Assembly (NCBI RefSeq): GCF_900103365.1 | Contig: NZ_LT629703.1 | Span: forward strand, 4,884,501-4,948,500 | Length of the DNA stretch: 64,000 bases | Source of the DNA: Afipia sp. GAS231 | Lineage (GTDB): Bacteria; Pseudomonadota; Alphaproteobacteria; Rhizobiales; Xanthobacteraceae | Reading direction: 5' to 3' | Shown: piece by piece, positions 37,414-58,738 of the stretch | Layout: the number at the start of each line of letters is the position of its first letter | Numbering within the stretch: position 1 is the stretch's first letter | Notes under the pieces: model-generated | Database searches by the model: none | Seen by the model: the letters and a program-made list of their open reading frames with translations, nothing else | What the model was told of the DNA's origin: nothing | Translations under genes and position numbers: made by a program

Positions 37414-38026
37414 GAAGGGGCTCCTGATCATTCTTCCAAGACGATAACGAATGGTGGTTGCCGTTTTGGATGATTGCAACTGTCGCCGCATTGCTTACTG
37501 GGACATCTCACATACGGAATTGGGACAGAGCGCAATCGCGGCCAGAGCAGTGTTCGACAAAAATGCGCCCGAGCAAAAGCACTCTCGTAACAGCAGCTCT
37601 TTTGGTTGCGTCAGCTCAGAGAAGTCGTGACTGGTGGAGGATTTAGCAGAATTACAGTTTGTACCGGTGGCGGTGGCGGTGGACGCGGTCGCGCACCTGA
37701 TCCGCTATTGAACCGAGGCGAAAAGCGCCGCGAATGACTCAAGCGCTTCTGTCGAACGAACCGTCTCGCGCCTGCACGAGCCCGCGCCAGAGCCCGCTCT
37801 CGTACGCGACACGCACGACTGCAACGTCATCTCGATCGATAATCCAAATTCCCCCAATTTGAAACCTTGAATGGAGCAACATGCTCCGTTTCCTCTACAG
37901 CGGGAAAGATCTCGTTCGCCATGTCCTGTACCCGTAGGACAGCCCGTCACAAAATTGTAAGTACGCTCCTAACTAGGTTCATGCAGTGCGCATCGCATGG
38001 GGACGCGCCAGTAGGGGGGCTATGAA
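37414..38026. other. Long intergenic region before the outer-membrane channel gene
   Basis: About 610 bp between divergent genes, with no convincing gene. It holds the 20-bp dyad at 37922-37941, listed separately, and a short GGCGGT repeat near 37665-37680. The rest shows nothing I recognise. Confidence 0.5.
37922..37941. promoter_or_regulatory. TGTCCT-N8-AGGACA operator, copy 1
   Basis: TGTCCT GTACCCGT AGGACA lies 85 bp before the GTG of the channel gene at 38027. The identical half-sites with the same 8-bp spacer occur before the AraC gene (53064) and the FAD hydroxylase (58719). Confidence 0.65.
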
Positions 38027-39022
38027 GTGAACAACGTATACAAGCTGATTTGCACTGCGAGCATCATCTCAGCGGCTATTTCAACAAGGCCGGCTGCCGC
38101 CTTTGAATTTGGAACGCCAGGCGCGATTCAGAAGCCTGGGGTTGCGATCGGTGGTACGTCCGCTGGCACGCCGCCTCCGGGAATCTACATGTTTGATCAA
38201 TTCGCGACCTACCAAGCAAAGATCGTGGGGCCCGGGGCGCCTCCCGGAGGTACGGCAGTTCAATATGGTGCGGCGGCAACAGGCTTCTTGTTTGTTCCTG
38301 GCTGGACTTTCTTGGGCGCTACCTACGACGCCGTTTTGGTCACGCCATTTGTGATGGACAGCATCGGCTCCCCGATCAACGTTCAGCAACTCGGCATGAG
38401 CAACACCTACATCGTGCCGATCGAACTGAGCTGGAAGTTGCAGGACTCCGGGTTCTTCGTGAAGGCGGGTTTGGGAGTCCATGTGCCCACCGGAAATATT
38501 TCAGGCCCGGCAGGTTTAGCGGGCCAGGGCAGTCCCTGGTACACGTTCCAGCCCGAGTTCATTGTTTCGTATCTCAAAGACGGCTGGAATTTGACAGCTA
38601 ATACCTTTGCGGAAATCAATACGAAAAACACAATCACCGGCTATCACAGCGGTGATATCCTCCATGCGGAGTTTCGCGCTACAAAAAGCATCGACAATTG
38701 GACTTTCGGACCGGTCGCATACTACTTCGGTCAAGTAACAGGCGACAAATCCAGCGCCTTTTATGGCAATGCGATAAATACAAACAAGTACGACGAATGG
38801 GCTGTCGGCGGATTGATCGGGTACAATTTTGGGCACGTCGCTCTGGACGTGTGGGCGATGAAAGAGTTCAAGCCCAATCCAACAGGAGGCACGGCAATTC
38901 CCGGGCGAGACAGCGCAGTCGCACTTGAAGGCTACTCGGTTTTCGCCCAGTTGAGTTACCGTCTTTGGGCTCCTGACGCTCCCGCGAGTTCGCCCAAGTT
39001 GAGCGGTTTGATCCACAAATAA
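38027..39022 (+). CDS. Phenol-MetA-pathway-type outer-membrane channel
   Basis: A 331-aa exported protein with a signal peptide (cleavage after RPAAA, about residue 24) and a beta-barrel composition of alternating aromatic and small residues, matching the SphA/MetA-pathway-of-phenol-degradation family. These channels let aromatic substrates cross the outer membrane and accompany catabolic operons. GTG start; another start is possible. An operator of the shared dyad type lies 85 bp upstream and a strong hairpin follows the stop. It fits as the entry port of the catabolic island. Confidence 0.8.
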   Translation: MNNVYKLICTASIISAAISTRPAAAFEFGTPGAIQKPGVAIGGTSAGTPPPGIYMFDQFATYQAKIVGPGAPPGGTAVQYGAAATGFLFVPGWTFLGATYDAVLVTPFVMDSIGSPINVQQLGMSNTYIVPIELSWKLQDSGFFVKAGLGVHVPTGNISGPAGLAGQGSPWYTFQPEFIVSYLKDGWNLTANTFAEINTKNTITGYHSGDILHAEFRATKSIDNWTFGPVAYYFGQVTGDKSSAFYGNAINTNKYDEWAVGGLIGYNFGHVALDVWAMKEFKPNPTGGTAIPGRDSAVALEGYSVFAQLSYRLWAPDAPASSPKLSGLIHK

Positions 39023-39041
39023 AGCGGACAAGCTTGTGCCT

Positions 39042-39069
39042 GGCCCGTCGTTTTTTTAAACGACGGGCC
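39042..39069. terminator. Hairpin after the channel gene
   Basis: GGCCCGTCGTTT (39042-39053) pairs with AAACGACGGGCC (39058-39069) across a TTTT loop, 19 bp after the stop. The 12-bp perfect stem has its T-run in the stem and loop rather than after it. Confidence 0.6.
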
Positions 39070-39294
39070 GGCGACGACCCGGAACAGGTAGCTGTGTTGG
39101 TCCCATCAGTTGGTGCTGGTTCTCATCCAACGATTGTCGCAATCGGCAAGCGGCGCAAATGCAGTCAAACGCGTAAGCGGGCTGCCCACTGCAGCGGCCC
39201 GGCGGTTTGGCACTTGGATCGGCTGGCGGTGATTCAGCCGTGGTCAGCTCGCGGGAACGGCGAGAGCATTTCTTTCCTGACCTGAGGACGATCG

Positions 39295-40308
39295 ATGAAG
39301 GACTACGAGGCATTCCATGCAGGAGATATAACCCTGCAAAACGGGTCCACTCTTGATAACGCGACCATCGCTTATGCGACATATGGGAAACTGAACAAGG
39401 CCCGCGACAACGTTATCGTGTATCCCACGTTCTTTGGCGGCAGCCACGTCGAGAATGAATGGTTGATCGGCGAGGGTCTTGCCTTGGACCCGAGCCGGTA
39501 TTTCATCGTCGTACCAAATCTCGTCGGAAATGGCTTTTCCACCTCTCCCAGCAACAGCGTCACTTCCCCGGGACCCAGCTTTCCGCTCGTAACCATCTAC
39601 GACAACGTCAAGCTTCAGCACCGCCTGCTGACAGAGCAGTTCGGGGTGCGTCGAGTTGCTCTCGCAGTGGGGTGGTCAGTGGGAGCTCAGCAGGCGTTTC
39701 ATTGGGGCGCTCTGTACCCCGACTATGTTGAACGGATCGCGCCCTTCTGTGGATCTGCCCGTACATCGCGCCACAATTTCGTATTTCTGGAAGGCGTAAA
39801 GGCCGCCTTGAAGGCCGATCAATCGTTTGAAGGCGGAGCTTATCGCAAGCCGCCCATCGAAGGCCTCAAAGCTTTTGCCCGTGTCTACGCGGGTTGGGGC
39901 TTTTCGCAGGCTTTCTATCGCGCCGAGTGCGATATCAAGGACCTTGGATTTCCATCCCTTGAGGCCTTCATTTTGGGCGTATGGGAGGCGCGCTTCACGA
40001 AGGCCGATGCGAATAACCTGCTGTCCATGATCGCAACCTGGCAGGCCGCCGACATAAGCGCGAACACCACATACGGCGGAGATTTTTCCAGGGCGCTCGG
40101 GTCCATCAAAGCGCGTGCACTCGTGATGCCCTGCAAGACGGATCTCTACTTCCCGCCCGAGGACAGCGAAATCGAAGTCAGCCAGATGCCGAACGCAGAG
40201 CTGAAGGTGATTCCATCGATTTGGGGACATTCGGCCGGCGCTCTCGGGCGCAACAAGACGGACGCCGCATTTATTGATCAGGCGATCAAAGACCTTCTGT
40301 CGGCATAG
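39295..40308 (+). CDS. MetX-like alpha/beta hydrolase
   Basis: A 337-aa protein of the homoserine O-acetyltransferase-like fold: nucleophile Ser in VGWSVGAQQAF, Asp in MPCKTDLYFPP, His in WGHSAGALG. True MetX enzymes are about 370 aa with GGSMGG around the Ser, so this is probably a hydrolase or acyltransferase of a side branch. GAGGACGATCG precedes the ATG. The amidase follows 142 bp downstream on the same strand, so the two may share a transcript. The 270 bp before it hold only the channel-gene hairpin. Confidence 0.75.
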   Translation: MKDYEAFHAGDITLQNGSTLDNATIAYATYGKLNKARDNVIVYPTFFGGSHVENEWLIGEGLALDPSRYFIVVPNLVGNGFSTSPSNSVTSPGPSFPLVTIYDNVKLQHRLLTEQFGVRRVALAVGWSVGAQQAFHWGALYPDYVERIAPFCGSARTSRHNFVFLEGVKAALKADQSFEGGAYRKPPIEGLKAFARVYAGWGFSQAFYRAECDIKDLGFPSLEAFILGVWEARFTKADANNLLSMIATWQAADISANTTYGGDFSRALGSIKARALVMPCKTDLYFPPEDSEIEVSQMPNAELKVIPSIWGHSAGALGRNKTDAAFIDQAIKDLLSA

Positions 40309-40450
40309 AGAGATGTTTGGGGACCATCTCGGGTGGCGACAGTGCCTTGCTGGAGAACCCAGGCGCTTGTCGACGCATGCGTCACGATCTCCACCAGTAC
40401 AGATTGCCGGAAGGGCGATCGAATAGATCATCGCTCTTAAGGAGAACGGA

Positions 40451-41875
40451 ATGCCGAATGCATGGGAACTTAGCGTCGCCGAGGCGGCTCAGGCTATTCG
40501 AGCAGGAGACTTGACGGCGGAATTGCTGGCTGAGGCTCTGATCGCGAGGACAAAAGCCAACGCCGAACTAAACGCTTTCGTCGATTTCGAGCCGGATTCC
40601 ATTCTGGAGTCCGCCAGGCATGCCGACCTCGCGCGAAGACAAGGGAAACGTCTGGGGCGACTGCACGGTGTTCCGATCTGCCTGAAGGACAATATCGATG
40701 CGGTTGGCTACGCCACTACCGCGTGCACGCCGGCACTGGCCGGAAACAATCCGAGGACGAATGCCCCGATCGTTGCTGCTTTGCTGAAAGAAGGCGCGAT
40801 CATCTTCGGAAAGAACACGATGCACGAACTTGCGTTCGGTATCACCTCCAACAACGCCGCTTTCGGGGCGGTTCGCAATCCATACGATCCACGGATGATA
40901 CCCGGAGGCTCGAGCGGAGGCACTGCGGCCGCGGTGGCCGCTCGATTGGCTCCAGCGGGCATCGGCACCGATACGGGAGGATCAGTCAGATTGCCCGCGG
41001 CGCTCTGCGGAGTGGCGGGCCTGCGGCCAACGGTAAAGCGGTGGCCACGACAAGGCATCGTTCCGATTGCATCGACGAGAGACACGGCCGGCCCGATCGC
41101 GCGGTCTATCGATGATCTACTCATAATCGACAGCGTCGTAACAGGCGACGTCGAGGAGAGATCCGAAATCGACTTGGGCGAGGTCAGGCTCGGCGTTCCT
41201 AAAAAACTCTATTGGGAGCAGCTCGAGAGCCACGTGGAAGCTGCCTGCTCCGATGCTCTGAAGCAATTGAGCGCGCTCGGCATCACCCTTGTCGAGGTTG
41301 ATCTTCCGGACATCGAAGCCCTGAACCAGGCCGTCAGCCAGATTGTTGCGCGGTACGAACCAAGAGTGGACATTCCCGCCTATCTGAGCGACGCGCGCTC
41401 AGAAGTCACGTTGAATGACATAGTTCGAAAGATTGCCAGTCCCGATGTGCGCCATATGGTGCAGGGCCTGCTTGATGAGCAGACCCGGGTTTCGGCGACT
41501 GCCTATGCTGCTGCGATCGACACATACCGACCCAGATTGGTCCAGGTCTTCGCAGATTATTTTTCTCGGAATGGGGTCGACGCGACGATCTTTCCGACAA
41601 GTGCCTTGTGCGCCCGTCCTATTGGTGATGATGCAACGGTCGAGTTGAACGGTCACCGCCTGCCCACGTTCCCGTCCTACATCCGCAACACGGATCCGGG
41701 GAGCAATGCAGGTGTGCCCGGCGTTTCGCTACCCATAGGCCTTAGCCCAACCGGCTTGCCAATCGGTCTTGCGATGGATGGTCCAGCCGGCAGCGATCGG
41801 CGTCTCCTGGAAATCGCTGCAAAGATCTCAGAGCACTTCCCGCGCATTCGAGCTCCAAACGTCAGGTCGGGTTAA
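40451..41875 (+). CDS. Amidase-signature hydrolase, indoleacetamide-hydrolase-like
   Basis: A 474-aa amidase with the complete Ser-cisSer-Lys triad: K79 (CLKDNID), S154 in GGSSGGT and nucleophile S178 (DTGGSVRLP). It cleaves a carboxamide to acid and ammonia. The stretch TACTPALAGNNPRTNAPIV resembles indoleacetamide hydrolases and related aryl amidases. A strong AAGGAGAACGGA site precedes the ATG. With the nitrilase and the ABC transporter of the same island it suggests amide or nitrile breakdown; the substrate is inferred only. Confidence 0.85.
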   Translation: MPNAWELSVAEAAQAIRAGDLTAELLAEALIARTKANAELNAFVDFEPDSILESARHADLARRQGKRLGRLHGVPICLKDNIDAVGYATTACTPALAGNNPRTNAPIVAALLKEGAIIFGKNTMHELAFGITSNNAAFGAVRNPYDPRMIPGGSSGGTAAAVAARLAPAGIGTDTGGSVRLPAALCGVAGLRPTVKRWPRQGIVPIASTRDTAGPIARSIDDLLIIDSVVTGDVEERSEIDLGEVRLGVPKKLYWEQLESHVEAACSDALKQLSALGITLVEVDLPDIEALNQAVSQIVARYEPRVDIPAYLSDARSEVTLNDIVRKIASPDVRHMVQGLLDEQTRVSATAYAAAIDTYRPRLVQVFADYFSRNGVDATIFPTSALCARPIGDDATVELNGHRLPTFPSYIRNTDPGSNAGVPGVSLPIGLSPTGLPIGLAMDGPAGSDRRLLEIAAKISEHFPRIRAPNVRSG

Positions 41876-41987
41876 TTTCAGGCCACACGTCCGAAAGCTT
41901 AGAGCCAGTTGCGCGGTGCTCTCGGTCTGATTTCTGCGCATGTGATCGGAAGCTCCATTCTTGGGGCGGACTCAGAGAGGTACCGAA

Positions 41988-42977
41988 ATGACCCAGATGG
42001 TTCCGGTGAAGGGGCTGCACCACTTCGCCTATCGCTGTCGGGACGCGGAGGAAACCCGGCATTTCTACGAGGACATCCTCGGATTGCCGCTGGTTCACAT
42101 AGTGCGGTCGAACAATGTGCTCTCGACGGGTGAATGTTGCCAGTTCGTGCAACTTTTCTTTCGGATGAAGGACGGTTCGCACATCGCTTTCTTCGACCTC
42201 GGCGACCAGCAGAAGGTCGAGCCCTCCGCCAATAACTCGACGTGGTTCAACCACCTGGCGCTCGCTGTCGACGATCTCGCCACGCTGGAAAAGGCGAAGG
42301 CAGCTCTGGAGGCGGAGGGAGTCCCGATTCTCGGGACCACCGACCACAACTACATCAAGTCAATCTACTTCTTCGATCCCAACGGCATCCGGCTGGAACT
42401 GACCACCGATGCTGGCTTTGACGGGCCTAGGGTCGTCAACCAGGATCCCGAAAGAGGGCGTTGCGACGTCCATCCTGTCCCGTCCGGCGATCCACCGTCC
42501 GCGCGGATGCGCCGGTTCCGGGGGGCGGAGGCGGTCGAAGAGGACTTCCCGATGAAGAGCCTCCGACATACGGCGTTTTACAGGGAATTCCTGCGGCCCG
42601 ATGACATGTACCACGGGATCAATATCTATCACGACATGGGCGACGGCCATATCGTCGACTTGCGGGTCTGGCGGCATGGGACAGACAGTCCCTTCGCGGC
42701 TTGCGAGGTTGACTTCCTGAACACGCAGACTGCGGTCGTTTGGAATGCGGTTTCACGCCAAGGAGGCACTGATCGGGGCGGAACACTTACGGCGCGCGAG
42801 CGCGAGATCGCACAATTGATAGCCAGAGGCTGCACCGACCTCGATATCGCGCGGATGCTCCGGATCAGCTTTTCGACAGTACGGACGCACGTGAATCGGT
42901 GCTTTGAAAAGCTCGGCTGCGCCAATCGCGCAGAACTCAGCGGTCTAGTTGCATCAACCCTGTCGTATCCGATCTGA
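41988..42977 (+). CDS. VOC-domain/LuxR-type regulator fusion
   Basis: One uninterrupted 329-aa frame. Residues 1-140 are a vicinal-oxygen-chelate domain (GLHHFAYRCRDAEETRHFYED, NHLALAVDD, IRLELTT) with a plausible His-His-Glu metal site. A linker follows (about 145-195), then a sensor-like part common in LuxR solos (AFYREFLRPDDMYHGINIY) and a C-terminal LuxR helix-turn-helix (about 262-315, LTAREREIAQLIARGCTD). This is unusual: the VOC domain replaces the normal ligand domain. It may sense a ring-cleavage product or aromatic substrate. AGAGAGG precedes ATG 41988. Confidence 0.8.
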   Translation: MTQMVPVKGLHHFAYRCRDAEETRHFYEDILGLPLVHIVRSNNVLSTGECCQFVQLFFRMKDGSHIAFFDLGDQQKVEPSANNSTWFNHLALAVDDLATLEKAKAALEAEGVPILGTTDHNYIKSIYFFDPNGIRLELTTDAGFDGPRVVNQDPERGRCDVHPVPSGDPPSARMRRFRGAEAVEEDFPMKSLRHTAFYREFLRPDDMYHGINIYHDMGDGHIVDLRVWRHGTDSPFAACEVDFLNTQTAVVWNAVSRQGGTDRGGTLTAREREIAQLIARGCTDLDIARMLRISFSTVRTHVNRCFEKLGCANRAELSGLVASTLSYPI

Positions 42978-43163
42978 CTGCCGGCGCACAAGTCGATGGC
43001 TCGGCATCACCGTCGACGACCACGCGACGTCGAGCGAGGCGCGGCTCGTCATTGTCATCTACGATCTCGGTGTGTCAGCGCTCGCTTCCGCCCAATCTAC
43101 AGGCACATCGCACAGAGACCATCCTCATTTCGGCTGTTCGAAACGGATCAGTGCTGAACCCAC

Positions 43164-43179
43164 TCGACAATATTGTCGA
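43164..43179. promoter_or_regulatory. Perfect 16-bp palindrome upstream of the ABC transporter
   Basis: TCGACAATATTGTCGA is self-complementary and lies 89 bp before the ATG of the binding protein, in a 291-bp non-coding gap (42978-43268). The adjacent LuxR-type fusion protein is one candidate regulator. Confidence 0.5.
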
Positions 43180-43268
43180 TACCGCATCCTCCAAGCGCGC
43201 CGGATACTCTTCGGCAAATGGGGAAAGTGCTGCGGCTCGGCTCAGCGTGGCCAACATGGGAGTTAGTA

Positions 43269-44426: not shown

Positions 44427-44432
44427 ACCGGA

Positions 44433-47880: not shown

Positions 47881-48846
47881 CTACCGCAGTTCGGCACGAA
47901 GCTCGCGCACGCCGCGGCCCAATCGCTGACGAAGCAGCGTGCGCAAGGTCGCTGCATCGACATAACCGACCTCGGTGGCGATGGCGTCGAGGCTGAGGCG
48001 GCGCTCGCGAACTAGCGCGCGCGCGCGTTCGACGCGCATGTCCTGGAAATAGGCGAGCGGCGACTTGCCGAGGATCGCCTGGCACCGACGCTGAAGCGAG
48101 CGTGGGCTCGTCGCCAGCGCACTCGCGGCCCCCTGCAGGGTAAAGCCCTCGCTCAGATGCTCGCGGCACCAGCGCTCGAATCGCAACACCACTGGGTCGG
48201 CCTGTGCCAGGAAATTGGGAATGATATAGGGCGCCTGCGATGCGCGCTGGTCGGCGAGCAGAAAGCGCGAGACGAGACCAGCGAGCTGGGGGCTCGCCTG
48301 GCGCACCAGCCAGAGCGCCAGGTCCAGGTGCCCCATCGCCGAACCGGCCGTGACACCCGTATCCGTGGGCACCAGCATCTGAGTTTCGTCGAGATGGACG
48401 CCTGGATAGCGTTGCCGAAACAGCGGCGCGAGCGACCATGTGCTCGTGGCCTTCCGCCCGTTGAGCAAGCCGGTCTCCGCCAAAAGATAGGTGCCGACGC
48501 AGGCGGCGGCGATGCGGGACCCGGCGGCGTGCCACTCAGCGATCCTGTCAACCGCCTGGCGCACGTCGGGGCGGGCCAGGGCAGGGAGCAGCGTTTCCGG
48601 TGTGACGGTCTTCAAGGCCGGCACGATCACCCAGTCCGGGGCCGGCCCCGAGGCGGCGTCGACGACGGGAATCGTTAAACCCTGACTGGAGCGCACCTTC
48701 CGTCTCACACCGACAACCGAGACTTCGAAGCCGGGTGGGCTCCCTTGCAGGGCTCGGGAAAGCGAGTTGGCCGACGAGAAAATATCCAGCGGACCGGTGA
48801 GCCCCGTGTCGAACACACCCTCAAGGGCAAGGATGAATATGCGCAT
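47881..48846 (-). CDS. GATase1-AraC regulator 1 (GlxA family)
   Basis: A 321-aa regulator. A DJ-1/PfpI-like domain (residues 1-190; ACVGTYLLAETGLLNGRKATSTW carries the Cys elbow) is fused to a C-terminal AraC DNA-binding domain (about 215-315, LSEGFTLQGAASALATSPRSLQRRC). GlxA-type regulators often control amine, amide or quaternary-ammonium use. A perfect 16-bp palindrome lies 20 bp upstream of the start, between it and the divergent YciI-like gene. Confidence 0.85.
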   Translation of the reverse strand: MRIFILALEGVFDTGLTGPLDIFSSANSLSRALQGSPPGFEVSVVGVRRKVRSSQGLTIPVVDAASGPAPDWVIVPALKTVTPETLLPALARPDVRQAVDRIAEWHAAGSRIAAACVGTYLLAETGLLNGRKATSTWSLAPLFRQRYPGVHLDETQMLVPTDTGVTAGSAMGHLDLALWLVRQASPQLAGLVSRFLLADQRASQAPYIIPNFLAQADPVVLRFERWCREHLSEGFTLQGAASALATSPRSLQRRCQAILGKSPLAYFQDMRVERARALVRERRLSLDAIATEVGYVDAATLRTLLRQRLGRGVRELRAELR

Positions 48847-49329: not shown

Positions 49330-50289
49330 TCAGTTCAGGCTCGCCGCATGGGCGCGGGCCATCCGACGGACGGTCTGCGGCGAATGCCCGAACAGCTTCA
49401 CGAATGCACGCCGCATGCACTCGATATCGCCGAAGCCAACGTCGCGGGCGATACTCTCGATCGGCTCGAGCCCATCCTCGATCCGCGGCCTTGCCGCCTC
49501 TGCCCGCAGGCGCTCGACCGCGCGCGCCGGCGTATCGCCGGTTTCCTTCAGGAATATGCGGGCGAACTGCCGGCTGCTGACACAAGCGGCCTCGGCCAGC
49601 CGCTCGACCGACAGCGCCTCGTTCAGGTGGTTGCGTGCATAAGCCAGGGCATTGCGAACCCGGCCGGATGCTGGCTCCAGCTCCAGCAACGCCGAGAACT
49701 GCGACTGGCCGCCAGGGCGACGATGGTAGACGACAAGCTCCCGCGCGACCGACCTTGCAAGCTCGGGCCCGAAGTCGGCTTCTAACATCGCGAGGGCCAG
49801 ATCGATTCCGGCGGAAATGCCCGCCGACGTCCAGACGCCGTGATCGTTCACGAAGATCCGGTCGACCTCAACTGAGACGGTTGGGAAGCGCGACTGAAGC
49901 AGCGGTGCGTACCGCCAATGCGTGGTGGCGCGGCGGCCATTCAGTACGCCGGCCTCGGCGAGATAGAAGGCCCCCGTGCAGACGCTGGCAATCCGCGGCG
50001 TCGAGGCGGCAAGCCGTTGCAGCGTCGCGCTCGTCTCGGGCTGGTTGCAGGGAACAAGGGCCTGCGGTCCGCCGACGACGACGACCGTATCGTGACGACC
50101 GACCGCGCTCGATGCGCCGGTGGCGACCATCAGCCCGGAATTGCCGGTGACCATCCCCCCGGCGACCGAGACGACGCCGACCTCATAGGGCACATCGTAG
50201 ATGCCGCGCGCCACCGTGAAAACGCTCATCGGACCCGCGAGATCCAGTGCTGCGAACTCTGGAGCAACGAAAAAGGTGACTCTGTGCAT
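49330..50289 (-). CDS. GATase1-AraC regulator 2 (GlxA family)
   Basis: A 319-aa regulator with the same two-part build: DJ-1/PfpI-like domain (residues 1-190, with SVCTGAFYLAEAGVLNGRRATTHW) and AraC domain (about 215-315, EALSVERLAEAACVSSRQFAR). AAGGACGAC precedes the ATG. It is divergent from the isonitrile-hydratase-like gene, whose product shares the N-terminal fold. Control of that gene is a reasonable guess. Confidence 0.88.
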   Translation of the reverse strand: MHRVTFFVAPEFAALDLAGPMSVFTVARGIYDVPYEVGVVSVAGGMVTGNSGLMVATGASSAVGRHDTVVVVGGPQALVPCNQPETSATLQRLAASTPRIASVCTGAFYLAEAGVLNGRRATTHWRYAPLLQSRFPTVSVEVDRIFVNDHGVWTSAGISAGIDLALAMLEADFGPELARSVARELVVYHRRPGGQSQFSALLELEPASGRVRNALAYARNHLNEALSVERLAEAACVSSRQFARIFLKETGDTPARAVERLRAEAARPRIEDGLEPIESIARDVGFGDIECMRRAFVKLFGHSPQTVRRMARAHAASLN

Positions 50290-51406: not shown

Positions 51407-51444
51407 GAAAGGGGATCCTTTCGCTGGATCCCCCTTTCGTTTTG
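51407..51444 (+). terminator. Rho-independent terminator
   Basis: GAAAGGGGATCC (51407-51418) pairs with GGATCCCCCTTTC (51426-51438, one extra C) and is followed by GTTTTG. It closes the isonitrile-hydratase-like gene. The next 325 bp (to 51769) show no convincing gene. Confidence 0.85.
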
Positions 51445-51769: not shown

Positions 51770-52123
51770 ATGATGCAGCAGATCTTCATCGAGTTATACA
51801 ACTACGGTCCGGCTTGGGGCAAATGCTCCGAAAACGAACGGACCGATTTCATCAAGAAGGTGATCGAATCCGTCAACGGAGTGAAATCTGCCGGCGTTGA
51901 TCTCATTGCCTACGGCAAGAATTCTCGTGAGACCGATCGCCGCGCGCCGTACGACTTCTTTTGCGTCTATCGTGTGCCGAGCGCCGAATTTCAGCGCGAG
52001 TTTGAGCGTCAGATCACTGCATCCGGTTGGTACAATTACTTTGAGCAGGTGAATGTTGGCGGCCCTGCGGAAGATTTTGCGGATGTGCTGTTGGGTAACG
52101 CCAAGCTGGCTCGTCCCGGCTGA
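51770..52123 (+). CDS. Small DUF6616-like protein
   Basis: A 117-aa soluble protein starting MMQQIFIELYNYGPAW, with DFIKKVIESVNGVKSAGVDL and ASGWYNYFEQVNVGG. It resembles the DUF6616 family of small alpha/beta-barrel-like proteins with no known activity. GAGG lies upstream of ATG 51770. The location in the nitrile/amide island is its only functional hint. Confidence 0.55.
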   Translation: MMQQIFIELYNYGPAWGKCSENERTDFIKKVIESVNGVKSAGVDLIAYGKNSRETDRRAPYDFFCVYRVPSAEFQREFERQITASGWYNYFEQVNVGGPAEDFADVLLGNAKLARPG

Positions 52124-52545
52124 GCACCTCCAACGGGGCCTCGCCGATCACCGAGGGCCCCCGTCACGAACTCGATTCCGCCAGCCAGCAGGGGCCTAGC
52201 GAACGTTTCAGGGCGTTGCGTGCTGACGTTGGGTAGAGTTGATGGGATTTTGGCATCGCTTAACACATTTGAATTCAGTGTCGGACCGATTGCGCTACGA
52301 TGAGTTTCCTTTGGGGCTCCTCCCATGCTCGGTCCTCTCACCACCGCGCGTTTTCGCGCCACCGCCAACGAGGTCTGCGACAGCAATTCCCATCATGAGA
52401 TCGGCGCGCGCACTTTGTCTGGCTTTGAAGATTCTAAAAGCCGCGGCTCGAGGTGACACATCGTCCGACGGATTCATGCATCTCGGTCGGGAGGTTCCCT
52501 CCTGCCCGCCGACGACGTGGTGACGGCGCGAGGAGCGCGGAGGCG
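52124..52545. other. Intergenic stretch with only doubtful small ORFs
   Basis: About 420 bp. Two tiny + strand frames exist (ATG 52325, 43 codons; ATG 52395, 42 codons); neither has a clear ribosome-binding site or a recognisable product. I see no repeats or hairpins of note. Confidence 0.4.
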
Positions 52546-52992
52546 GTGAACTTTCAGGTCACGGTGCTGAAGATATTAGCAAGCTATCCGGATGGTTTCG
52601 CGCCGATGACGAACCTCAAGCATGACATGGCCATTCTGGCGACTAGCGGCCAAGATTGGGCCGAGCGAACCAGGCGCTTGGCCTTGCGCGTTCCGGACCT
52701 GGACATCTTTTCACAGACTCTCATCGAGCGGTTGAACGGCGGGTGGCGTATCACCGAAAAGGGGCGCGCCGTGCTCACCATCATGGAAGCCCGGCCTGGC
52801 GATCCGCAGCCCACGACGGGAATATCTCAATTGGACTTTACCTGGCCCGCAGCGCCCCTGTTGCGTCGTCCGTCGGCGGCACCTCTGAGGCAGCGCCGGA
52901 CCCCGCCTGCTTCGCCGCACCGCCAAGGCGCGAGCTCACGGACGGCACTCTCGATAAGGTGTTCACCGAAGATATCCACGGCCGACAGTTGA
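52546..52992 (+). CDS. Winged-helix-like conserved hypothetical protein
   Basis: A 148-aa protein. The first 85 residues (FQVTVLKILASYPDGFAPM, LIERLNGGWRITEKGRAVL) have the pattern of a small winged-helix domain seen in many Bradyrhizobium hypothetical proteins. The tail is low-complexity, Pro/Arg/Ser-rich and may not be conserved. GTG 52546 is chosen because homologous sequence begins there after GGAGGCG. A regulatory role is inferred from the fold only. Confidence 0.6.
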   Translation: MNFQVTVLKILASYPDGFAPMTNLKHDMAILATSGQDWAERTRRLALRVPDLDIFSQTLIERLNGGWRITEKGRAVLTIMEARPGDPQPTTGISQLDFTWPAAPLLRRPSAAPLRQRRTPPASPHRQGASSRTALSIRCSPKISTADS

Positions 52993-53063
52993 ACGAAGAT
53001 AAGCTCCAATGAGGGAGCCAAGGCTTGAAATCACTTCTTGGGCCTATGCCCCCCCATTTTCTT

Positions 53064-53083
53064 TGTCCTATGCTTATAGGACA
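53064..53083. promoter_or_regulatory. TGTCCT-N8-AGGACA operator, copy 2
   Basis: TGTCCTAT-GCTT-ATAGGACA has 8-bp perfect arms, the most symmetric of the three copies. It lies 132 bp before the GTG of the AraC gene, in a 223-bp gap with no gene. It may be the autoregulatory site. Confidence 0.65.
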
Positions 53084-53215
53084 GTGTTTGAGTGGCTTCC
53101 TACTACTCTGTTGTCATCGTGTCATGTTGCACGTGGGGTTAGTCACTAATGCCCGGCGCACCGGTCGTATCGCGAGAGGGATCACTTTTCATTATTCGTT
53201 GGTGGGGCCGGGGCA

Positions 53216-54172
53216 GTGCACATCGCATATTCAACAAGAAGTGTCGGTAAGGCTCAAGCCTTCGAGTATTGGACCGATTTGATTTGCGATGTCTACGTCG
53301 GATTGGATTGCGATTGTAGCGAACGAAGTCGATTTGAAGCGGATATCGTTCGATTTGACACGTCGCAATTCCGGCTAAGCGAGATTTCCGGGTCTGCTCA
53401 CCGCGCGGTTCGCAGTTCCAAGCGGCTTGCGCGTTCACCCAACGATGATGTGCTCGCCAATCTTCAAATCGATGGTCGAACTTCGATCGTTCAAAGTGGT
53501 CGCCGGGTCGAACTTTGTCGAGGCGATCTCGCATTCTACGATGCAAGTCTTGAATACGAGATTGTAGCCGAATCGAATTTCCGGACGCTTGTCTTTCAGT
53601 TGCCCCGGCGAACATTCAGCGAGAGATACTCCGAAATTGGCTCCGCAGTTGGCCATAAATTGGACGGAGCGTTTGGGTTGGCACGACCGATCCTGCGCTT
53701 CCTCTCGGAGGTGCCCAATGCGTCCGAAGAGGCGGGCGTCAACCGAGCGATACTGGAGCAATATTCCGTTGATTTTCTGCGAACAGCAATGAGCTTGGTC
53801 GCGCCAGGACAGAAACGGTCAACCTCTGCACAGACTGAGGCCTGCTTACTGCGCGCCAAACAAATTGTGGAAGAACATTTGAGCGATCCCGAATTCAACC
53901 GCGAGCAGTTGGCGGTTCTGCTCGGTATTTCGGTTCGCGGGCTGTCTAGGCTATTTTCTGACGAGAAAGTAAGTCCAAGCGACTATATCCGCCTTCGTCG
54001 GCTAGAACACTGTCGTCGTGCACTCTTGGATCCGAAATCGACTGCGCGCACGATCACTGAAATAGCTTTCTGCTACGGCTTCAACGATAGCGCCCATTTT
54101 AGCAGCGTTTTTCGTGGTGCTTATGGACAGTCACCGCGTGACTATAGATTTGCCTTGGAACGATGCCGGTGA
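53216..54172 (+). CDS. AraC-family activator next to the nitrilase (NitR/FeaR-like)
   Basis: A 318-aa regulator with an N-terminal AraC-binding-like domain of the FeaR/NitR type (FEYWTDLICDVYVGLDCD, FRLSEISGSAHRAVRS, LQIDGRTSIVQSGR) and a C-terminal AraC helix-turn-helix pair (about 210-315, REQLAVLLGISVRGLSRLF and TEIAFCYGFNDSAHFSSVF). Regulators of this subfamily activate nitrilase, amidase and aromatic-amine genes, and the nitrilase follows 205 bp downstream. GTG start; GGGGCCGGGGCA upstream. The shared dyad lies in its own promoter. Confidence 0.85.
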   Translation: MHIAYSTRSVGKAQAFEYWTDLICDVYVGLDCDCSERSRFEADIVRFDTSQFRLSEISGSAHRAVRSSKRLARSPNDDVLANLQIDGRTSIVQSGRRVELCRGDLAFYDASLEYEIVAESNFRTLVFQLPRRTFSERYSEIGSAVGHKLDGAFGLARPILRFLSEVPNASEEAGVNRAILEQYSVDFLRTAMSLVAPGQKRSTSAQTEACLLRAKQIVEEHLSDPEFNREQLAVLLGISVRGLSRLFSDEKVSPSDYIRLRRLEHCRRALLDPKSTARTITEIAFCYGFNDSAHFSSVFRGAYGQSPRDYRFALERCR

Positions 54173-54377
54173 GTTCGCAGACGCTCAAGATGCAGGGCTA
54201 GGTTCGAAAACCTAACTGCGCGTGCCGTCGGTTTGCGACGTTCACCCGCTTCGACCACGGTCAAAAAGATGGATCCACCTGTCTTGTCCCGGAATTCCAA
54301 GTTTTTTGGCCGTTTCTGCAAAGCAGGACGGATGAATATCCCCGATATTTCGTCGTTCGCTCAACAAGGAGGTAACT

Positions 54378-55418
54378 ATGTCCGGAACCGGACCTATCGG
54401 CCCCGTCGTGAAAGTCGCCGTCGTTCAGGCCGCGCCATGTCTGAATGATCTTGATGCGGGCGTCGAGAAGGCGATTGCCTTGATCGACCAAGCAGGCAAG
54501 GCTGGCGCGCGGCTCGTCAACTTCCCGGAAATTTGGTTGCCTGGCTATCCGTGGTGGATCTGGCTCAATCCACCGGCCATCAACATGCAGTACGTCGCGC
54601 CCTACATGAAGAACTCCATCGTTGCAGGCAGCAAGCACGACCACGCACTTCGTGCCGCCGCTCGCCGCAACAATATTCACGTCGTGATCGGTGTCTCTGA
54701 GCGTGCGGGTGGCAGCCTGTATATGGCTCAGTGGCATTACGGCCCCGAAGGCGAGGTGATCTGGCGCCGCCGTAAGCTGAAACCGACGCACGTCGAACGC
54801 AGTGTCTTTGGCGAGGGCGATGGCAGCGACTTGATTGTTACTCAGACCAATTTCGGTCGTGTCGGAGCGCTATGCTGTTGGGAGCACCTCCAGCCGCTGT
54901 CGAAATACGCGCTCTTTTCCCAAGACGAACAGATCCATTGCGCGGCGTGGCCGGCTTTCAGCCTCTATGCGAAACTCTCGAAGGCCTTCAGCCCCGAAGT
55001 CAGCGTCAACGTCAACCAAATCTACGCCGTAGAAGGGCAATGCTTCGTCCTGTCGTCCTGCTCAGTTATCGATCAAGCAATCTACGACATGCTGGTGCAG
55101 AGCGAATTGCACCAGAAATTCCTCGAAGTTGGCGGCGGCTTCAGCCGAATTTTCGGGCCGAACGGTGCTGAATTCGGTGAGAACCTCCCACCCGACAGGG
55201 AAGGCCTGGTAGTTGCAGATATCGACCTCGGCCTGATCTTGCATTCCAAGAGTGCGGCTGATCCGGCCGGTCACTACGCCAGGCCCGATGCACTCGCACT
55301 CATGCATAACCGTAACCCGCGCCGTCCGGTCATCGGCTTCGGCGAGGCGACGCGCAAGGTTGCCGACGCACAGCCCAAAGGCGCAGAGCCCGCGGAAACG
55401 CTCGAGGCAGCCGAGTAA
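54378..55418 (+). CDS. Nitrilase
   Basis: A 346-aa carbon-nitrogen hydrolase, the normal length for nitrilases. The catalytic set is complete: E51 (NFPEIWLPGYPWW), K135 (RRKLKPTHVER) and C167 (ALCCWEHLQPL). It turns a nitrile directly into acid and ammonia; the motif around the Cys is that of true nitrilases rather than amidases. A perfect AAGGAGGT precedes the ATG. The AraC activator gene lies upstream and a good terminator follows, so it forms its own unit. Aryl or arylaliphatic substrate is likely from context, not proven. Confidence 0.92.
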   Translation: MSGTGPIGPVVKVAVVQAAPCLNDLDAGVEKAIALIDQAGKAGARLVNFPEIWLPGYPWWIWLNPPAINMQYVAPYMKNSIVAGSKHDHALRAAARRNNIHVVIGVSERAGGSLYMAQWHYGPEGEVIWRRRKLKPTHVERSVFGEGDGSDLIVTQTNFGRVGALCCWEHLQPLSKYALFSQDEQIHCAAWPAFSLYAKLSKAFSPEVSVNVNQIYAVEGQCFVLSSCSVIDQAIYDMLVQSELHQKFLEVGGGFSRIFGPNGAEFGENLPPDREGLVVADIDLGLILHSKSAADPAGHYARPDALALMHNRNPRRPVIGFGEATRKVADAQPKGAEPAETLEAAE

Positions 55419-55493
55419 CGTAGGTCGCCTAGTCTCAACATCTCCCGATTGAATCTCGAGAAGCGCCCGACTTAACCTCCCGGGCACTTCCTT

Positions 55494-55525
55494 TGGCCTC
55501 CGGCATCTTGTCGGAGGCCATTTTT
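55494..55525 (+). terminator. Rho-independent terminator after the nitrilase
   Basis: TGGCCTCCG (55494-55502) pairs with CGGAGGCCA (55512-55520) and is followed by TTTTT. Textbook terminator 75 bp after the nitrilase stop. Confidence 0.88.
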
Positions 55526-55575
55526 CATACCCGGCTGGGTCACGACTTCTGACAACACGAGGCAGGGAGGTCATT

Positions 55576-55833
55576 ATGTTTCGCGTACCACGACACAACA
55601 GCCACTATGTCTATGGCGCCATCCAATCGAACATTACCTGCTCGATCACGGCGGCCGTGGCCAGCCTACCATTTCTGGCAGAGGGATCTTTCGTGTTGCG
55701 GTGGCTCTCGTCGTGGGTCTGCGCATGGCTAGTGGCGCTGCCAATCGCGCTGCTCGCGGCGCCCGTCATTAGAAGGTTGACCGATCTTTTGACTTCCGAA
55801 GAAGCGGGAGCGCACGTCGACACGACCAAGTGA
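55576..55833 (+). CDS. DUF2798 small membrane protein
   Basis: An 85-aa protein with two transmembrane helices (about 17-37 and 43-66) and the DUF2798 pattern (YGAIQSNITCSITAAVAS, then WLSSWVCAWLVALPIALLAAPVIRRL). Function unknown. GGGAGG lies before the ATG. It stands alone between the nitrilase terminator and the dioxygenase. The 158 bp after it show no gene. Confidence 0.75.
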   Translation: MFRVPRHNSHYVYGAIQSNITCSITAAVASLPFLAEGSFVLRWLSSWVCAWLVALPIALLAAPVIRRLTDLLTSEEAGAHVDTTK

Positions 55834-55991
55834 TCGCGACCGGAACCGCCTCGCACAAATCGAGCGCAACTCGGCGGGGGAAGTGTCAGATTGGCGCGAG
55901 GGGGTTAGCGGCTTTTCACTCGAGTCCGTGCCGGTGAAGCGGCGAGTTCAACAGTTTAACAGGCGCAGGCAACGGCCCGGGGAGATTTGAC

Positions 55992-56972
55992 GTGATTCGA
56001 CCGAACATCACCAAACCACCATTCGACATCATTCGATGCAGCCATCCCGTTCTCGGCGTCAGGGATGTCGAAGTGTCCGGGCGGTTCTACGTCGATCAAC
56101 TCGGCTATATCGTTACCGAGCGAGATAGCGATACCCTCTATTTGCGCAACCTCGAATGTCGAACCCATCATTCACTCGTGCTCAAGCGTACGGCTGAACC
56201 CTCCTGTGAGGTGCTGGCGTGGAAGGTAGCGAGCGAAGATGATCTTGATCGCGCCCGTCATTGGTTTTCAATGAAGGGACTTCCGGCAGAATTCGTGGAA
56301 CGACACGGTCAGGGACGGACCCTGAAGACGAGCGACGCCCTCGGCATGCCGCTGGAATTCTACGCATCGATGGACTTCGTTCCGTGCAAACTGCAGGAGT
56401 ACGGCGCCTATCGGGGCGCATATATCCAGCGACTCGATCATTTCAATTGTTATTCACCTGACGTGCAGAAATCATATGATTTCTGGAGCGACCTCGGTTT
56501 CCGTTTGACTGAATATACGGAATCGGAAGAAGCGGCTGGCGCGCTATGGGCGGTGTGGCTCCATCGCAAGGGCGGGGTTCATGATATCGCCTTCACAAAT
56601 GGGCGCGGCCCTCGGCTTCACCATTTCGCCGGGTGGGTAACAGGAGTGGGCGATCTCGTGCATATCTGCGACGTCCTATCGGCCAACGGCTATTTGGCAA
56701 ATATAGAGCGCGGACTCGGACGGCACGGCATAGGGAATGCGCTCTTTCTCTATCTGCGGGACCCCGACGGCCATCGGATCGAGCTGTTTTGCAGCGATTA
56801 TTTGACGGTCGATCCGGACCTCGTTCCCAAGCGATGGGAACTCCGCGACGCGCGCCGTCAGACCTTGTGGGGCATGCCGGCGCCCCGCAGCTGGTTCGAA
56901 CAAGGCACGGCGTTTCCGAATGTGCCCGTCGGCGAACCGGCCGTCGCGCCGCAGCCAATCGTTGCCCACTAG
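55992..56972 (+). CDS. Extradiol dioxygenase, homoprotocatechuate-2,3-dioxygenase-like
   Basis: A 326-aa two-domain VOC enzyme. The C-terminal catalytic half has the metal ligands H150 (RLDHFNCYSPDV), H210 or H211 (LHHFAGWV) and E264 (HRIELF), together with N152, W189, H197 (GVHDIAFT) and Y254, a set seen in 3,4-dihydroxyphenylacetate 2,3-dioxygenases. It would cleave a catechol ring next to the hydroxyls. GTG start. The glutathione transferase gene begins 9 bp after its stop, so the two are co-transcribed. Confidence 0.87.
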   Translation: MIRPNITKPPFDIIRCSHPVLGVRDVEVSGRFYVDQLGYIVTERDSDTLYLRNLECRTHHSLVLKRTAEPSCEVLAWKVASEDDLDRARHWFSMKGLPAEFVERHGQGRTLKTSDALGMPLEFYASMDFVPCKLQEYGAYRGAYIQRLDHFNCYSPDVQKSYDFWSDLGFRLTEYTESEEAAGALWAVWLHRKGGVHDIAFTNGRGPRLHHFAGWVTGVGDLVHICDVLSANGYLANIERGLGRHGIGNALFLYLRDPDGHRIELFCSDYLTVDPDLVPKRWELRDARRQTLWGMPAPRSWFEQGTAFPNVPVGEPAVAPQPIVAH

Positions 56973-56981
56973 GAGATAGAC

Positions 56982-57647
56982 GTGTCAAACGACCCGGCGT
57001 TGACCTTGTTCTACAGTCCTCGAGCATGTTCGCTCGCCTGCCATATCGCGCTTGAAGAATCCGGAATTCCATTTGCCACAAAGGAGGTCAGGATCCGCGA
57101 GAACAAGCACAAGGATGAGAGTTATCGTCAGATCAATCGTTGGGGAAAGATTCCAGCGCTCATGATCGGCGACCAGGTGCTCACTGAAGCGCACGCGATC
57201 CTAAGCTACATTGGCGACCGCGCGGCTCATGAGCTACTGCTCCCCGCGTCCGGCACGCTCGCACGGGCTCGGGCACATGAATGGATGAACTTTCTGTCAA
57301 GCACGGTCCATATTGCCTTTCGTCCTTTGTTCCGAACGGCGGTACTCGCTGGAGCGAACGGACCGATCGATGCAGTAAGACGAGCCGGAATACCGCTTCT
57401 GCGAGAAACTCTCGCAGAAGTCGATCGCAGGTTGGCCGGACGTTCTTGGGCGCTCGGGGAGAAGTACAGTGTCTGCGATCCGTACCTGTTGGTGTTCTGG
57501 ATCTGGAGCCAACGTGACGATGTGATCGAGCTTGTCGAAGAAATGCCAAACTGGCGAGGTCTGGCGGACCGCATTCTTGTTCGACCAGCAACCCAGCGAG
57601 CGTTGGCAAGAGAGGGATTGACGCCGGAGGCGCTGAGGTCGGCTTGA
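56982..57647 (+). CDS. Glutathione S-transferase, BphK-like
   Basis: A 221-aa beta-class-like transferase. The N-terminal thioredoxin fold has the catalytic Cys in SPRACSLACHIALEESG (C16), as in BphK of biphenyl operons; the helical domain follows from about residue 90. AGGAGATAGAC precedes the GTG. Coupled to the ring-cleavage dioxygenase, it may remove halogens or handle reactive ring-cleavage products. Confidence 0.85.
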   Translation: MSNDPALTLFYSPRACSLACHIALEESGIPFATKEVRIRENKHKDESYRQINRWGKIPALMIGDQVLTEAHAILSYIGDRAAHELLLPASGTLARARAHEWMNFLSSTVHIAFRPLFRTAVLAGANGPIDAVRRAGIPLLRETLAEVDRRLAGRSWALGEKYSVCDPYLLVFWIWSQRDDVIELVEEMPNWRGLADRILVRPATQRALAREGLTPEALRSA

Positions 57648-57831
57648 TCCGGCTCGCTCCAAACCTAAATTGGACGACCGCAACCGCCGAGCTCAGACCA
57701 AAAGGAGCCTGCGTCGCCGGCTCTATCCACATCCCAAAGCCAGCAAGGCCAGCGAAGCACGATCAGGAACACGGGTCGCCGCAACGACCCGCTCCTTCGA
57801 TGCCGCCAATGAGCAGAACGTCCGAGGCTCC

Positions 57832-58530
57832 TCAAGCGTCGTAGGCAGGCGTTTGGCGACCCAATCCGTCAAAACAATCGAGCAAGCGGTCGCGCCAGTG
57901 CCTGACCGGATCGTCCTTCTCCAAAAGCGCATAAGGGCTGACGCAGCGCGCCCACTGGAACGGACCGAAAACCGCGTAATCCGCGTACAGAGGCTGATCG
58001 CCGCCCAAGAATGGTTGCGACTTCAGCGTGAATCGCAGAGCGGCCAAGCTCGCGCGAAAATCGGGCAGGCGCTTATCGCGGTCGGAAACGACGGTTTCAA
58101 GCTTCGCGTTGGCACGCTTCTCGCGGCTTGCGCGAAAATAATCGCGATCCTTCTCCGCGACATGCTGCAGGACATCAAGCACGACAAACGGGAACATCGC
58201 TCGGACGAGACCGTCGGCAATGTCCGAATAATGACGCGACAGACTTCGTCCGGCCGGCCCGCCGAACAATGACGGAGCATTCGGATATTTGTCCTCAAGA
58301 TAGTTCGCGATCGTCCAGGAGTCGGCGATCCATTGATCGCCATCGACAAGGACCGGTACCAGGGCCTGTCCGGACGGGGAGATCTCCTCCTTTTCAGTGA
58401 AGCGCCAGGGGATCGTCTCGACGGGAAGGTTCTTGTGCGCGAGCGCGAGCCGGATACGCCAGCAATAGGGGCTGAAACGGCGATCGAGCTCCGCGCCTGC
58501 CAGGTCGAATAAACGCAATGTCTTTGTCAT
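57832..58530 (-). CDS. Glutathione S-transferase, beta-etherase-like
   Basis: A 232-aa transferase of another subgroup. The N-terminus FSPYCWRIRLALAHKNLPVE and the stretch WIADSWTIANYLEDKYPNAPSLFGG resemble LigE/LigF beta-etherase-type enzymes, which use Ser or Asn rather than Cys at the glutathione site. It is convergent with the BphK-like gene and divergent from the hydroxylase operon. Substrate unknown. The 184-bp gap to the other transferase shows nothing. Confidence 0.82.
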   Translation of the reverse strand: MTKTLRLFDLAGAELDRRFSPYCWRIRLALAHKNLPVETIPWRFTEKEEISPSGQALVPVLVDGDQWIADSWTIANYLEDKYPNAPSLFGGPAGRSLSRHYSDIADGLVRAMFPFVVLDVLQHVAEKDRDYFRASREKRANAKLETVVSDRDKRLPDFRASLAALRFTLKSQPFLGGDQPLYADYAVFGPFQWARCVSPYALLEKDDPVRHWRDRLLDCFDGLGRQTPAYDA

Positions 58531-58718
58531 GAAGATACCGAACCTTGCTCGGGCCTATGATGGCCGCTGTGGACCCGCCGAAAGTATATATTCTTAGGTT
58601 CATACGGGCTGCTGGCTTCCGAGGCCAATACTCAACCCGGTGTCATCGGCTTCTTGAGTGACACCTCAGCTTCCGTCGTCCTAATAAATTGATCGTCGCA
58701 CGCTGCGTTGAGGCAGTC

Positions 58719-58738
58719 TGTCCTCAATCCAAAGGACA
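58719..58738. promoter_or_regulatory. TGTCCT-N8-AGGACA operator, copy 3
   Basis: TGTCCT CAATCCAA AGGACA lies 50 bp before the ATG of the FAD hydroxylase; the arms extend to 9 bp (58716-58724 with 58733-58741). A second inverted repeat, GGTGTCA (58639-58645) with TGACACC (58659-58665), lies further up. Either could also serve the divergent transferase gene. Confidence 0.65.

What the first reader, a model, noticed from the sequence alone, without database searches (positions are those of the whole stretch)
37922..58738. One 20-bp operator, TGTCCT-N8-AGGACA, occurs three times and may unite the cargo genes in one regulon
Identical half-sites with an identical 8-bp spacer lie at 37922-37941, 53064-53083 and 58719-58738. 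All three are intergenic and upstream of a cargo gene: the outer-membrane channel (85 bp), the AraC regulator (132 bp) and the FAD hydroxylase (50 bp). Twelve fixed bases are expected about 0.004 times by chance in 64 kb, so three copies in promoters are hard to dismiss even though the pattern was chosen after the fact. The copy before the AraC gene is the most symmetric, which suggests autoregulation and makes that protein a candidate regulator of uptake and ring hydroxylation.
Basis: partly seen in the sequence, partly recalled or inferred. Interest (0 to 1): 0.78.

Follow-up and report, generated by a model that had tools for sequence, protein, structure and literature searches.

The report
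LuxR-type operator of a degradation island
A short mirror-image DNA switch repeated across a bacterial degradation gene island is real, but comparison with relatives points to a different regulator than first guessed: a quorum-sensing-like LuxR protein that standard surveys would miss.

Summary
The dyad is real. TGTCCT-N8-AGGACA occurs three times in the window and only four times in the 7.58-Mb genome, all within 32 kb; the fourth copy and a one-mismatch fifth lie just past the window. No exact copy occurs nearby at any other spacer.

AraC is probably not its reader: around 14 AraC-homologue loci there are no matches at the island's spacing. The dyad is enriched beside homologues of the island's LuxR-type gene (61684-62478, minus): within 400 bp of 48 such genes, 21 sites with 10 bases and 8 with 11 between five-base arms, against shuffle means 0.77 and 0.69. 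In relatives it precedes the P450 or SDR gene near luxR. A published LuxR-type (CsuR) box has the same arms, CTGTCC/GGACAG, but only four bases between.

A -10-like hexamer starts 21-22 bases after the dyad at 12 of 12 P450 promoters and 3 of 5 island sites, but at 0 of 4 SDR and 0 of 2 luxR promoters: weak support for activation.

The protein has the quorum-receptor fold, but 0 of 67 family members match Pfam's autoinducer-binding model. Binding and ligand are untested.

The parts
37922..37941 (+). Site 1: dyad before the porin-like gene and the genes that follow it in the same direction
   Evidence: exact match; TANNNT hexamer 21 bases downstream
53064..53083 (+). Site 2: dyad before araC and the nitrilase gene
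   Evidence: exact match; TANNNT hexamer 21 bases downstream
58719..58738 (+). Site 3: dyad before the FAD hydroxylase gene; symmetry extends to GTCTGTCCT/AGGACAGAC
   Evidence: exact match; wider pattern exact; no TANNNT at 21-22
61684..62478 (-). LuxR-type solo gene, proposed reader of the dyad
   Evidence: GerE domain; quorum-receptor fold predicted; dyad enriched at its homologues
62525..62544 (+). Degenerate dyad (3 mismatches of 12) about 47 bp before luxR; may be chance
38027..39022 (+). Porin-like outer-membrane protein (Phenol_MetA_deg family), target of site 1
   Evidence: Pfam PF13557
41988..42977 (+). VOC-GerE fusion protein, lies in the run of + strand genes after site 1
   Evidence: Pfam; six two-domain relatives at 73-85%
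53216..54172 (+). AraC-family regulator nearest to FeaR; target of site 2
   Evidence: Pfam and NCBIfam
54378..55418 (+). Nitrilase gene after araC; a terminator-like hairpin follows at 55494-55520
55992..56972 (+). HpaD-type extradiol dioxygenase; no dyad directly before it
   Evidence: TIGR02295 above cut-off
58789..60516 (+). FAD-dependent hydroxylase, target of site 3
   Evidence: NF006002 above cut-off
60719..61669 (+). MBL-fold hydrolase after the hydroxylase; MBL genes also stand by luxR in Bosea and Paracoccus
   Evidence: Pfam
62621..63340 (-). TetR-family regulator, same direction as luxR, downstream of site 5 (site 5 lies outside the window)
   Evidence: Pfam
63337..64000 (-). alpha/beta-hydrolase-like ORF that continues past the window end towards the VOC gene and site 5
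   Evidence: ORF; no NCBIfam match

Best explanation
The dyad is the operator of the LuxR-type solo regulator encoded at 61684-62478 (minus strand). A dimer of this protein, which has the fold of quorum-sensing receptors, binds the two (C)TGTCC arms. At most sites the dyad lies where the -35 box would be, so the bound dimer probably contacts RNA polymerase and activates the promoter when it holds its ligand, more likely a substrate or intermediate of the aromatic pathway than an acyl-homoserine lactone. The regulon covers uptake (porin-like gene and the genes after it), AraC-nitrilase, the FAD hydroxylase, a GST, and the divergent VOC and MetE-like genes outside the window; the VOC-side run of genes also holds TetR and LuxR, which would give feedback. 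AraC is a second-tier regulator, probably of the nitrilase. Shown: the sites, their clustering, their association with LuxR homologues and with promoters near them, the predicted fold. Inferred: binding, activation, ligand, feedback, operon extents.
For: Genome-wide 4 of 4 exact copies in 32 kb. Around 48 LuxR-homologue loci, within 400 bp and at most one mismatch, 21 sites at spacer 10 and 8 at spacer 11, in 26 of 48 loci; shuffle means 0.77 and 0.69, maximum 3 of 100 rounds each. In 30 loci (29 genus, 1 plasmid) dyad and P450/SDR neighbour go together: 14 both, 13 neither, 3 gene hit only; in two of these three the dyad stands before the P450 further away. A published LuxR-type box, CsuR's CTGTCCGATAGGACAG, has the same six-base arms (PMC12114271, abstract and passages). 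Fold matches SdiA, TraR, QscR, RhlR, CviR and the VqsR ligand domain. -10-like hexamer at a fixed 21-22 bases at 12 of 12 P450 promoters and 3 of 5 island sites.
Against: 22 of 48 LuxR-homologue loci have no such site within 400 bp. The window's own luxR has only a 3-mismatch dyad before it. The -10 spacing is absent at island sites 3 and 4, at site 5 read towards VOC, and at 0 of 4 SDR and 0 of 2 luxR-upstream sites; the P450 promoters are related to each other, so they are not independent. Most homologues compared are only 26-39% identical to the window's LuxR. Close relatives (72-94%) could not be seen with their DNA. The arms are 6 bp further apart than in the CsuR box. No binding experiment.
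Confidence: 0.82

Rival explanations
1. The AraC/FeaR-like protein at 53216-54172 binds the dyad, regulates itself and controls uptake and hydroxylation.
For: One exact and most symmetric copy lies 132 bp before its gene.
Against: 0 of 14 AraC-homologue loci have the dyad at spacer 10; the one spacer-11 match is inside a nitrilase ORF. The dyad occurs at LuxR homologues where the annotation tables list no AraC-family gene (L070, L075, L077). All but one of the AraC homologues compared are under 40% identical (G377 is 45%), so a changed site in them cannot be excluded.
Confidence: 0.07
2. The TetR-family protein at 62621-63340 represses the five promoters through the dyad.
For: Its gene lies in the run of genes downstream of site 5; 20-bp palindromes are usual for TetR proteins (recalled).
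Against: No relative found in 252 genus genomes (E at most 1e-40) or on plasmids (E at most 1e-15), so it could not be compared; but the dyad occurs beside luxR in clusters where no TetR gene is annotated (L066, L067, L070, L075, L077, L079).
Confidence: 0.05
3. The VOC-GerE fusion protein (41988-42977), not the LuxR solo, reads the dyad.
For: It carries a LuxR-type DNA-binding domain and lies in the run of genes after site 1; its VOC half resembles the VOC gene beside site 5.
Against: Its DNA-binding part is only distantly like the LuxR solo (25% identity over 154 positions); the dyad was found with homologues of the solo. Its own homologues' promoters were not examined.
Confidence: 0.05
4. 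The copies are chance matches or remains of a mobile-element repeat, not operators.
For: The pattern was chosen after reading, and the region lies beside conjugation genes (read by eye).
Against: 4 of 4 genome-wide copies in 32 kb, about 3e-7 if placed at random. Inner bases and flanks differ between copies. The dyad recurs at promoters in relatives.
Confidence: 0.01

Closest known systems
CsuR lux box of Chromobacterium subtsugae, CTGTCCGATAGGACAG (PMC12114271; abstract and passages seen)
   Same: Identical six-base arms, CTGTCC and GGACAG, read by a LuxR-type receptor.
   Different: Four bases between the arms there, ten or eleven here; CsuR is an AHL receptor paired with the synthase CsuI, the island's LuxR has no LuxI gene beside it.
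LuxR solos and quorum receptors (TraR, SdiA, QscR, RhlR)
   Same: Two-domain fold, GerE DNA-binding domain, dyad of about 20 bp in promoters (20 bp stated for LuxR solos in PMC4338825, passages).
   Different: No PF03472 match in 0 of 67 family members; W57 and probably W85 of the AHL pocket not kept.
VqsR of Pseudomonas aeruginosa
   Same: Best sequence match of the sensor half among solved structures (5xhx, E 4.1e-8) and a fold match (target TM 0.60).
   Different: A virulence and quorum regulator; its binding motif could not be checked (paper not held).
LuxR-type catabolic regulators: TeiR of Comamonas testosteroni, a LuxR solo for dibenzofuran genes in Rhodococcus
   Same: LuxR-type proteins that control degradation of organic compounds (TeiR: passage in PMC8700777; Rhodococcus: reference title only).
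   Different: Not compared in sequence here; their operators were not seen.
FeaR / NitR-type AraC regulators
   Same: The island's AraC is nearest to FeaR (156 bits), and some relatives stand beside a nitrilase gene, as NitR does (recalled).
   Different: FeaR cut-off (199) not met; the dyad does not accompany these proteins.

Membership tests
LuxR solo (quorum-sensing LuxR without its own LuxI) | C-terminal GerE DNA-binding domain | tested here: met
   PF00196 in the window protein and in 67 of 67 family members.
LuxR solo (quorum-sensing LuxR without its own LuxI) | N-terminal autoinducer-binding domain by sequence model (PF03472), the survey criterion (PMC10134790, passages) | tested here: not met
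   0 of 67 members at E up to 0.01.
LuxR solo (quorum-sensing LuxR without its own LuxI) | Fold of the autoinducer receptors | tested here: met
   Predicted model, pLDDT 90, pTM 0.69; full-length hits have TM about 0.4 and large rmsd (domain placement), VqsR ligand domain TM 0.60 on the target. A prediction, not a solved structure.
LuxR solo (quorum-sensing LuxR without its own LuxI) | AHL-pocket residues W57, Y61, D70, P71, W85 (list from PMC4338825, passages) | tested here: inconclusive
   One alignment to the window's TraR-like protein: Y61, D70 and P71 kept; W57 is I77; W85 probably A105. G113 not judged.
LuxR solo (quorum-sensing LuxR without its own LuxI) | No luxI among the neighbouring genes | tested here: met
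   The nearest luxI-like ORF (34844-35476, with its own luxR) is about 26 kb away.
Canonical lux box | CTG..CAG-type arms read by a LuxR-type protein | tested here: met
   Arms CTGTCC/GGACAG equal those of CsuR; at island sites the outer C is present in sites 3 and 5, the outer G in 5 of 5. Reading by LuxR itself not tested.
Canonical lux box | Spacer as in the CsuR box (four bases between CTGTCC and GGACAG) | tested here: not met
   Ten or eleven bases here.
FeaR (AraC) regulon | AraC protein above the FeaR cut-off | tested here: not met
   156.2 bits against 199.
FeaR (AraC) regulon | The dyad accompanies homologues of the AraC protein | tested here: not met
   0 of 14 loci at spacer 10; 1 of 14 at spacer 11, inside an ORF.
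Class II activator site | Site replaces the -35 box at a fixed distance from -10 | tested here: inconclusive
   P450 promoters 12 of 12, island 3 of 5, SDR 0 of 4, luxR-upstream 0 of 2, site 5 minus orientation 0 of 1. No mapped transcription start.

The most novel reading that the evidence does not exclude
There is a widespread, so far uncatalogued branch of quorum-receptor-fold LuxR proteins that no longer match the autoinducer-binding sequence model. They kept lux-box arms (CTGTCC/GGACAG) but read them six or seven bases further apart, in two spacer classes, and have become chemical sensors for aromatic and related catabolic gene islands in alpha- and betaproteobacteria. The operator can be recognised from sequence, so their regulons can be read from genomes. 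The recurrent luxR-VOC neighbourhood and a conserved VOC-GerE fusion suggest that the VOC protein takes part in sensing.
Probability: 0.5. Interest if true: 0.72.

Novelty: new variant of a known kind. Interest (0 to 1): 0.6.

Why it matters
Most LuxR solos have unknown ligands and targets, and the two surveys of which I saw passages select them by PF03472 or IPR005143 (PMC10134790, PMC4338825). A group with the same fold but without that signature falls outside them. An operator that can be recognised from sequence names the target genes at once and so makes the ligand question testable: the ligand should be a compound of the pathway that the dyad marks. It also raises a structural question, how the same arms can be read with a spacer longer by six bases. 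For this island it changes which protein should be footprinted first.

Tried and rejected

Finding the same island elsewhere: no LuxR relative at the limits set (E 1e-50, 1e-45) in 391 family and 385 class genomes besides the own genome, none in viral contigs, only remote AraC hits in genome contigs.

TetR by comparison: no relatives found.

Literature: no paper held TGTCC, GGACA, LuxR-type and palindrom together. TGTCCT, AGGACA, binding site and regulator gave 882 papers, 20 listed; I first passed these over by title, then looked up two: one gave the CsuR box, in the other the words are primer sequences in the places shown. The other 862 were not seen. A FeaR-site search gave nothing usable. 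That this wide dyad is undescribed rests only in an open-licence library.

Rows dropped: the -10 profile used 19 of 48 printed site orientations; left out were one duplicate (L090), one near-duplicate (L103), all spacer-11 sites, and sites whose target side was unclear. One search recounted 24 by class. Of 21 plasmid records with a LuxR match 19 were fetched; of the genus loci the 29 best new ones were used (128 genomes had a match); of 17 plasmid records with an AraC match 6 were fetched. In the tree L093 and L068 were not labelled spacer 11, though each has a one-mismatch spacer-11 match that I took as chance; L096 (one-mismatch site overlapping its stop) was counted as without a dyad.
Full report
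What was claimed. Three copies of TGTCCT-N8-AGGACA upstream of cargo genes, read as an AraC-controlled regulon.

The copies are where stated and exact. In 123.5 kb of chromosome around them the two six-base arms form an exact pair only at spacer 8, four times, of spacers 0 to 30. The genome (7,584,136 bases, one contig) holds exactly four, and the fourth is at C1:4954466-4954485, 6 kb past the window's end. The 10-base pattern TGTCC-N10-GGACA returns the same four. A one-mismatch copy, TGTCAT-N8-AGGACA, lies at C1:4949586, 1.1 kb past the window; the other 11 one-mismatch places are scattered. The fourth copy is 199 bp before a GST ORF. The fifth lies between a VOC gene (86 bp from its start, minus strand) and a divergent MetE-like ORF. 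The MetE-like label is by eye; neither Pfam nor NCBIfam matched it. All five sites are followed by G, and inner bases and flanks differ, so they are not recent duplicates.

Background. In 265 genus genomes the exact dyad occurs in 73, and in the seven other genomes with several copies these are on different contigs or at least 0.7 Mb apart. From that rate about 0.001 copies are expected in 32 kb.

Which protein. I first took AraC as the candidate. At E up to 1e-55 only one of 391 family genomes besides the own has a relative (G377, 45%). It sits divergently beside a nitrilase and has no dyad, the best match having 3 mismatches. Three of six plasmid relatives also sit divergently beside a carbon-nitrogen hydrolase gene (L082, L083, L084). 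That suggests AraC is the nitrilase's own regulator (inference).

The turn came from the LuxR-type gene at 61684-62478. On plasmids its homologues stand among genes like the island's. Bosea sp. 685 and B. vaviloviae have VOC, alpha/beta hydrolase, MBL-fold and FAD oxidoreductase genes; Variovorax and Neorhizobium petrolearium have VOC, hydrolase and FAD genes; Paracoccus has FAD and MBL genes; Sagittula has VOC. The luxR-VOC gaps of Bosea and Neorhizobium hold TGTCC-N11-GGACA (L064, L066, L067, L070, L081 exact, L076 with one mismatch). I then counted at 48 loci (19 plasmid, 29 genus). Within 400 bp of luxR and with at most one mismatch there are 21 sites at spacer 10, 8 at spacer 11 and 0 to 7 at any other spacer from 0 to 30. 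Shuffles give 0.77 and 0.69, at most 3 in 100 rounds. Around 14 AraC loci the counts are 0 and 1. Of the 7 at spacer 14, three are shifted readings of dyads already counted, three are one shared sequence in three relatives, and one is another match. 22 of 48 loci have no site.

The sites belong to promoters of neighbours. In 30 loci (29 genus, 1 Bradyrhizobium plasmid) dyad and adjacent P450 or SDR gene go together: 14 both, 13 neither, 3 gene hit only. In two of those three, L099 (one mismatch) and L109 (exact), the P450 starts 1.1-1.4 kb past luxR and the dyad stands just before it; the third (L092) is a distant P450 (24%). In Novosphingobium sp. KACC 22771 dyads lie before an MFS gene, between a luciferase-like gene and a second luxR, and (one mismatch) before a TonB-receptor-like ORF, much like the regulon proposed here (receptor named by eye). 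In the tree that LuxR joins the window's (support 97/55, long branches, so unsure), and the six loci labelled spacer 11 form one clade (97/88).

A published parallel. CsuR of Chromobacterium subtsugae is reported to use CTGTCCGATAGGACAG (PMC12114271, abstract and passages): the same six-base arms with four bases between them. This came from the literature after the comparative result and supports a LuxR-type reader; the spacing differs by six bases.

How it may work. A TANNNT hexamer starts 22 bases after the dyad at 12 of 12 P450 promoters, and at 21, 21 and 22 bases at island sites 1, 2 and 5 (plus orientation). It is absent at island sites 3 and 4 (site 4 has GACGCT at 22), at site 5 read the other way, at 4 of 4 SDR promoters and at 2 of 2 sites before luxR. 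The P450 promoters are related, so this is weak support for an activator seated over the -35 region with its centre near -44; it is not general. The predicted structure (pLDDT 90) matches quorum receptors, with low TM scores for full length because of domain placement; the best sequence relative of the sensor half among solved structures is VqsR (5xhx is named VqsR and in a passage of PMC9144697). In one alignment to the window's TraR-like protein Y61, D70 and P71 of the AHL pocket are kept, W57 is I, and W85 is probably A (residue list from PMC4338825, passages). So I expect a ligand other than an AHL (inference). Pathway aromatics are the likeliest: genes near family members include hpaD/E/H (Gemmobacter) and homogentisate genes (Agrobacterium, Paracoccus), and the island has an HpaD-type dioxygenase above cut-off. 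Those Gemmobacter and Agrobacterium loci themselves show no dyad.

What is known. LuxR-type regulators of catabolism exist (TeiR, passage in PMC8700777; a Rhodococcus solo, reference title only), so the kind is known. What differs is the missing PF03472 signature (0 of 67 members), the wide spacing and its two classes. I found no description of this operator in the open-licence library; most of the 882 papers and all subscription papers were not seen.

Host. A Bradyrhizobium plasmid (CB82) has the luxR-P450 pair with the P450 82% identical to a genus genome's, so the host is probably Bradyrhizobium (inference).

Noticed in passing
window 41988-42977 (+): A VOC (glyoxalase-fold) domain fused to a LuxR-type GerE domain; six two-domain relatives at 73-85% identity in metagenomes, so the fusion is conserved. 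It resembles the VOC gene beside site 5 joined to a truncated LuxR.
   Followed up: partly
window 34844-36448 (-): A luxI-like synthase ORF (TraI-type, below cut-off) with a TraR-like luxR beside it, next to conjugation genes; its own operator was not looked for.
   Followed up: no
L069 (Novosphingobium sp. KACC 22771 plasmid) 8423-8479, 12861-12880, 16538-16557: Several dyads in one cluster with two LuxR-solo genes, MFS, luciferase-like and TPP-enzyme genes: an independent candidate regulon.
   Followed up: partly
L063 2400-2465 (Variovorax sp. PBL-E5 plasmid): Two one-mismatch dyads in the gap before an acetyl-CoA acetyltransferase gene, 8 kb from the luxR homologue, which itself has none.
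   Followed up: no
L065 11862-11882 (Sagittula stellata plasmid): The luxR-VOC gap holds TGTCA-N11-TGACA, a possible changed arm with spacer 11.
   Followed up: no
window 47881-48846 and 49330-50289 (-): Two ORFs that look by eye like DJ-1/PfpI-type AraC regulators lie close together; no dyad with up to 3 mismatches between them and their neighbours.
   Followed up: no
window 14256-14275 (+): A variant palindrome CGTCCT-N8-AGGACG (2 mismatches, 8 of 10 symmetric pairs) inside a long ORF of the conjugation region.
   Followed up: no
AraC loci L059, L082, L083, L084: FeaR-like AraC genes stand divergently beside a nitrilase or carbon-nitrogen hydrolase gene in 4 of 7 loci looked at, a possible regulator-nitrilase pair.
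   Followed up: partly
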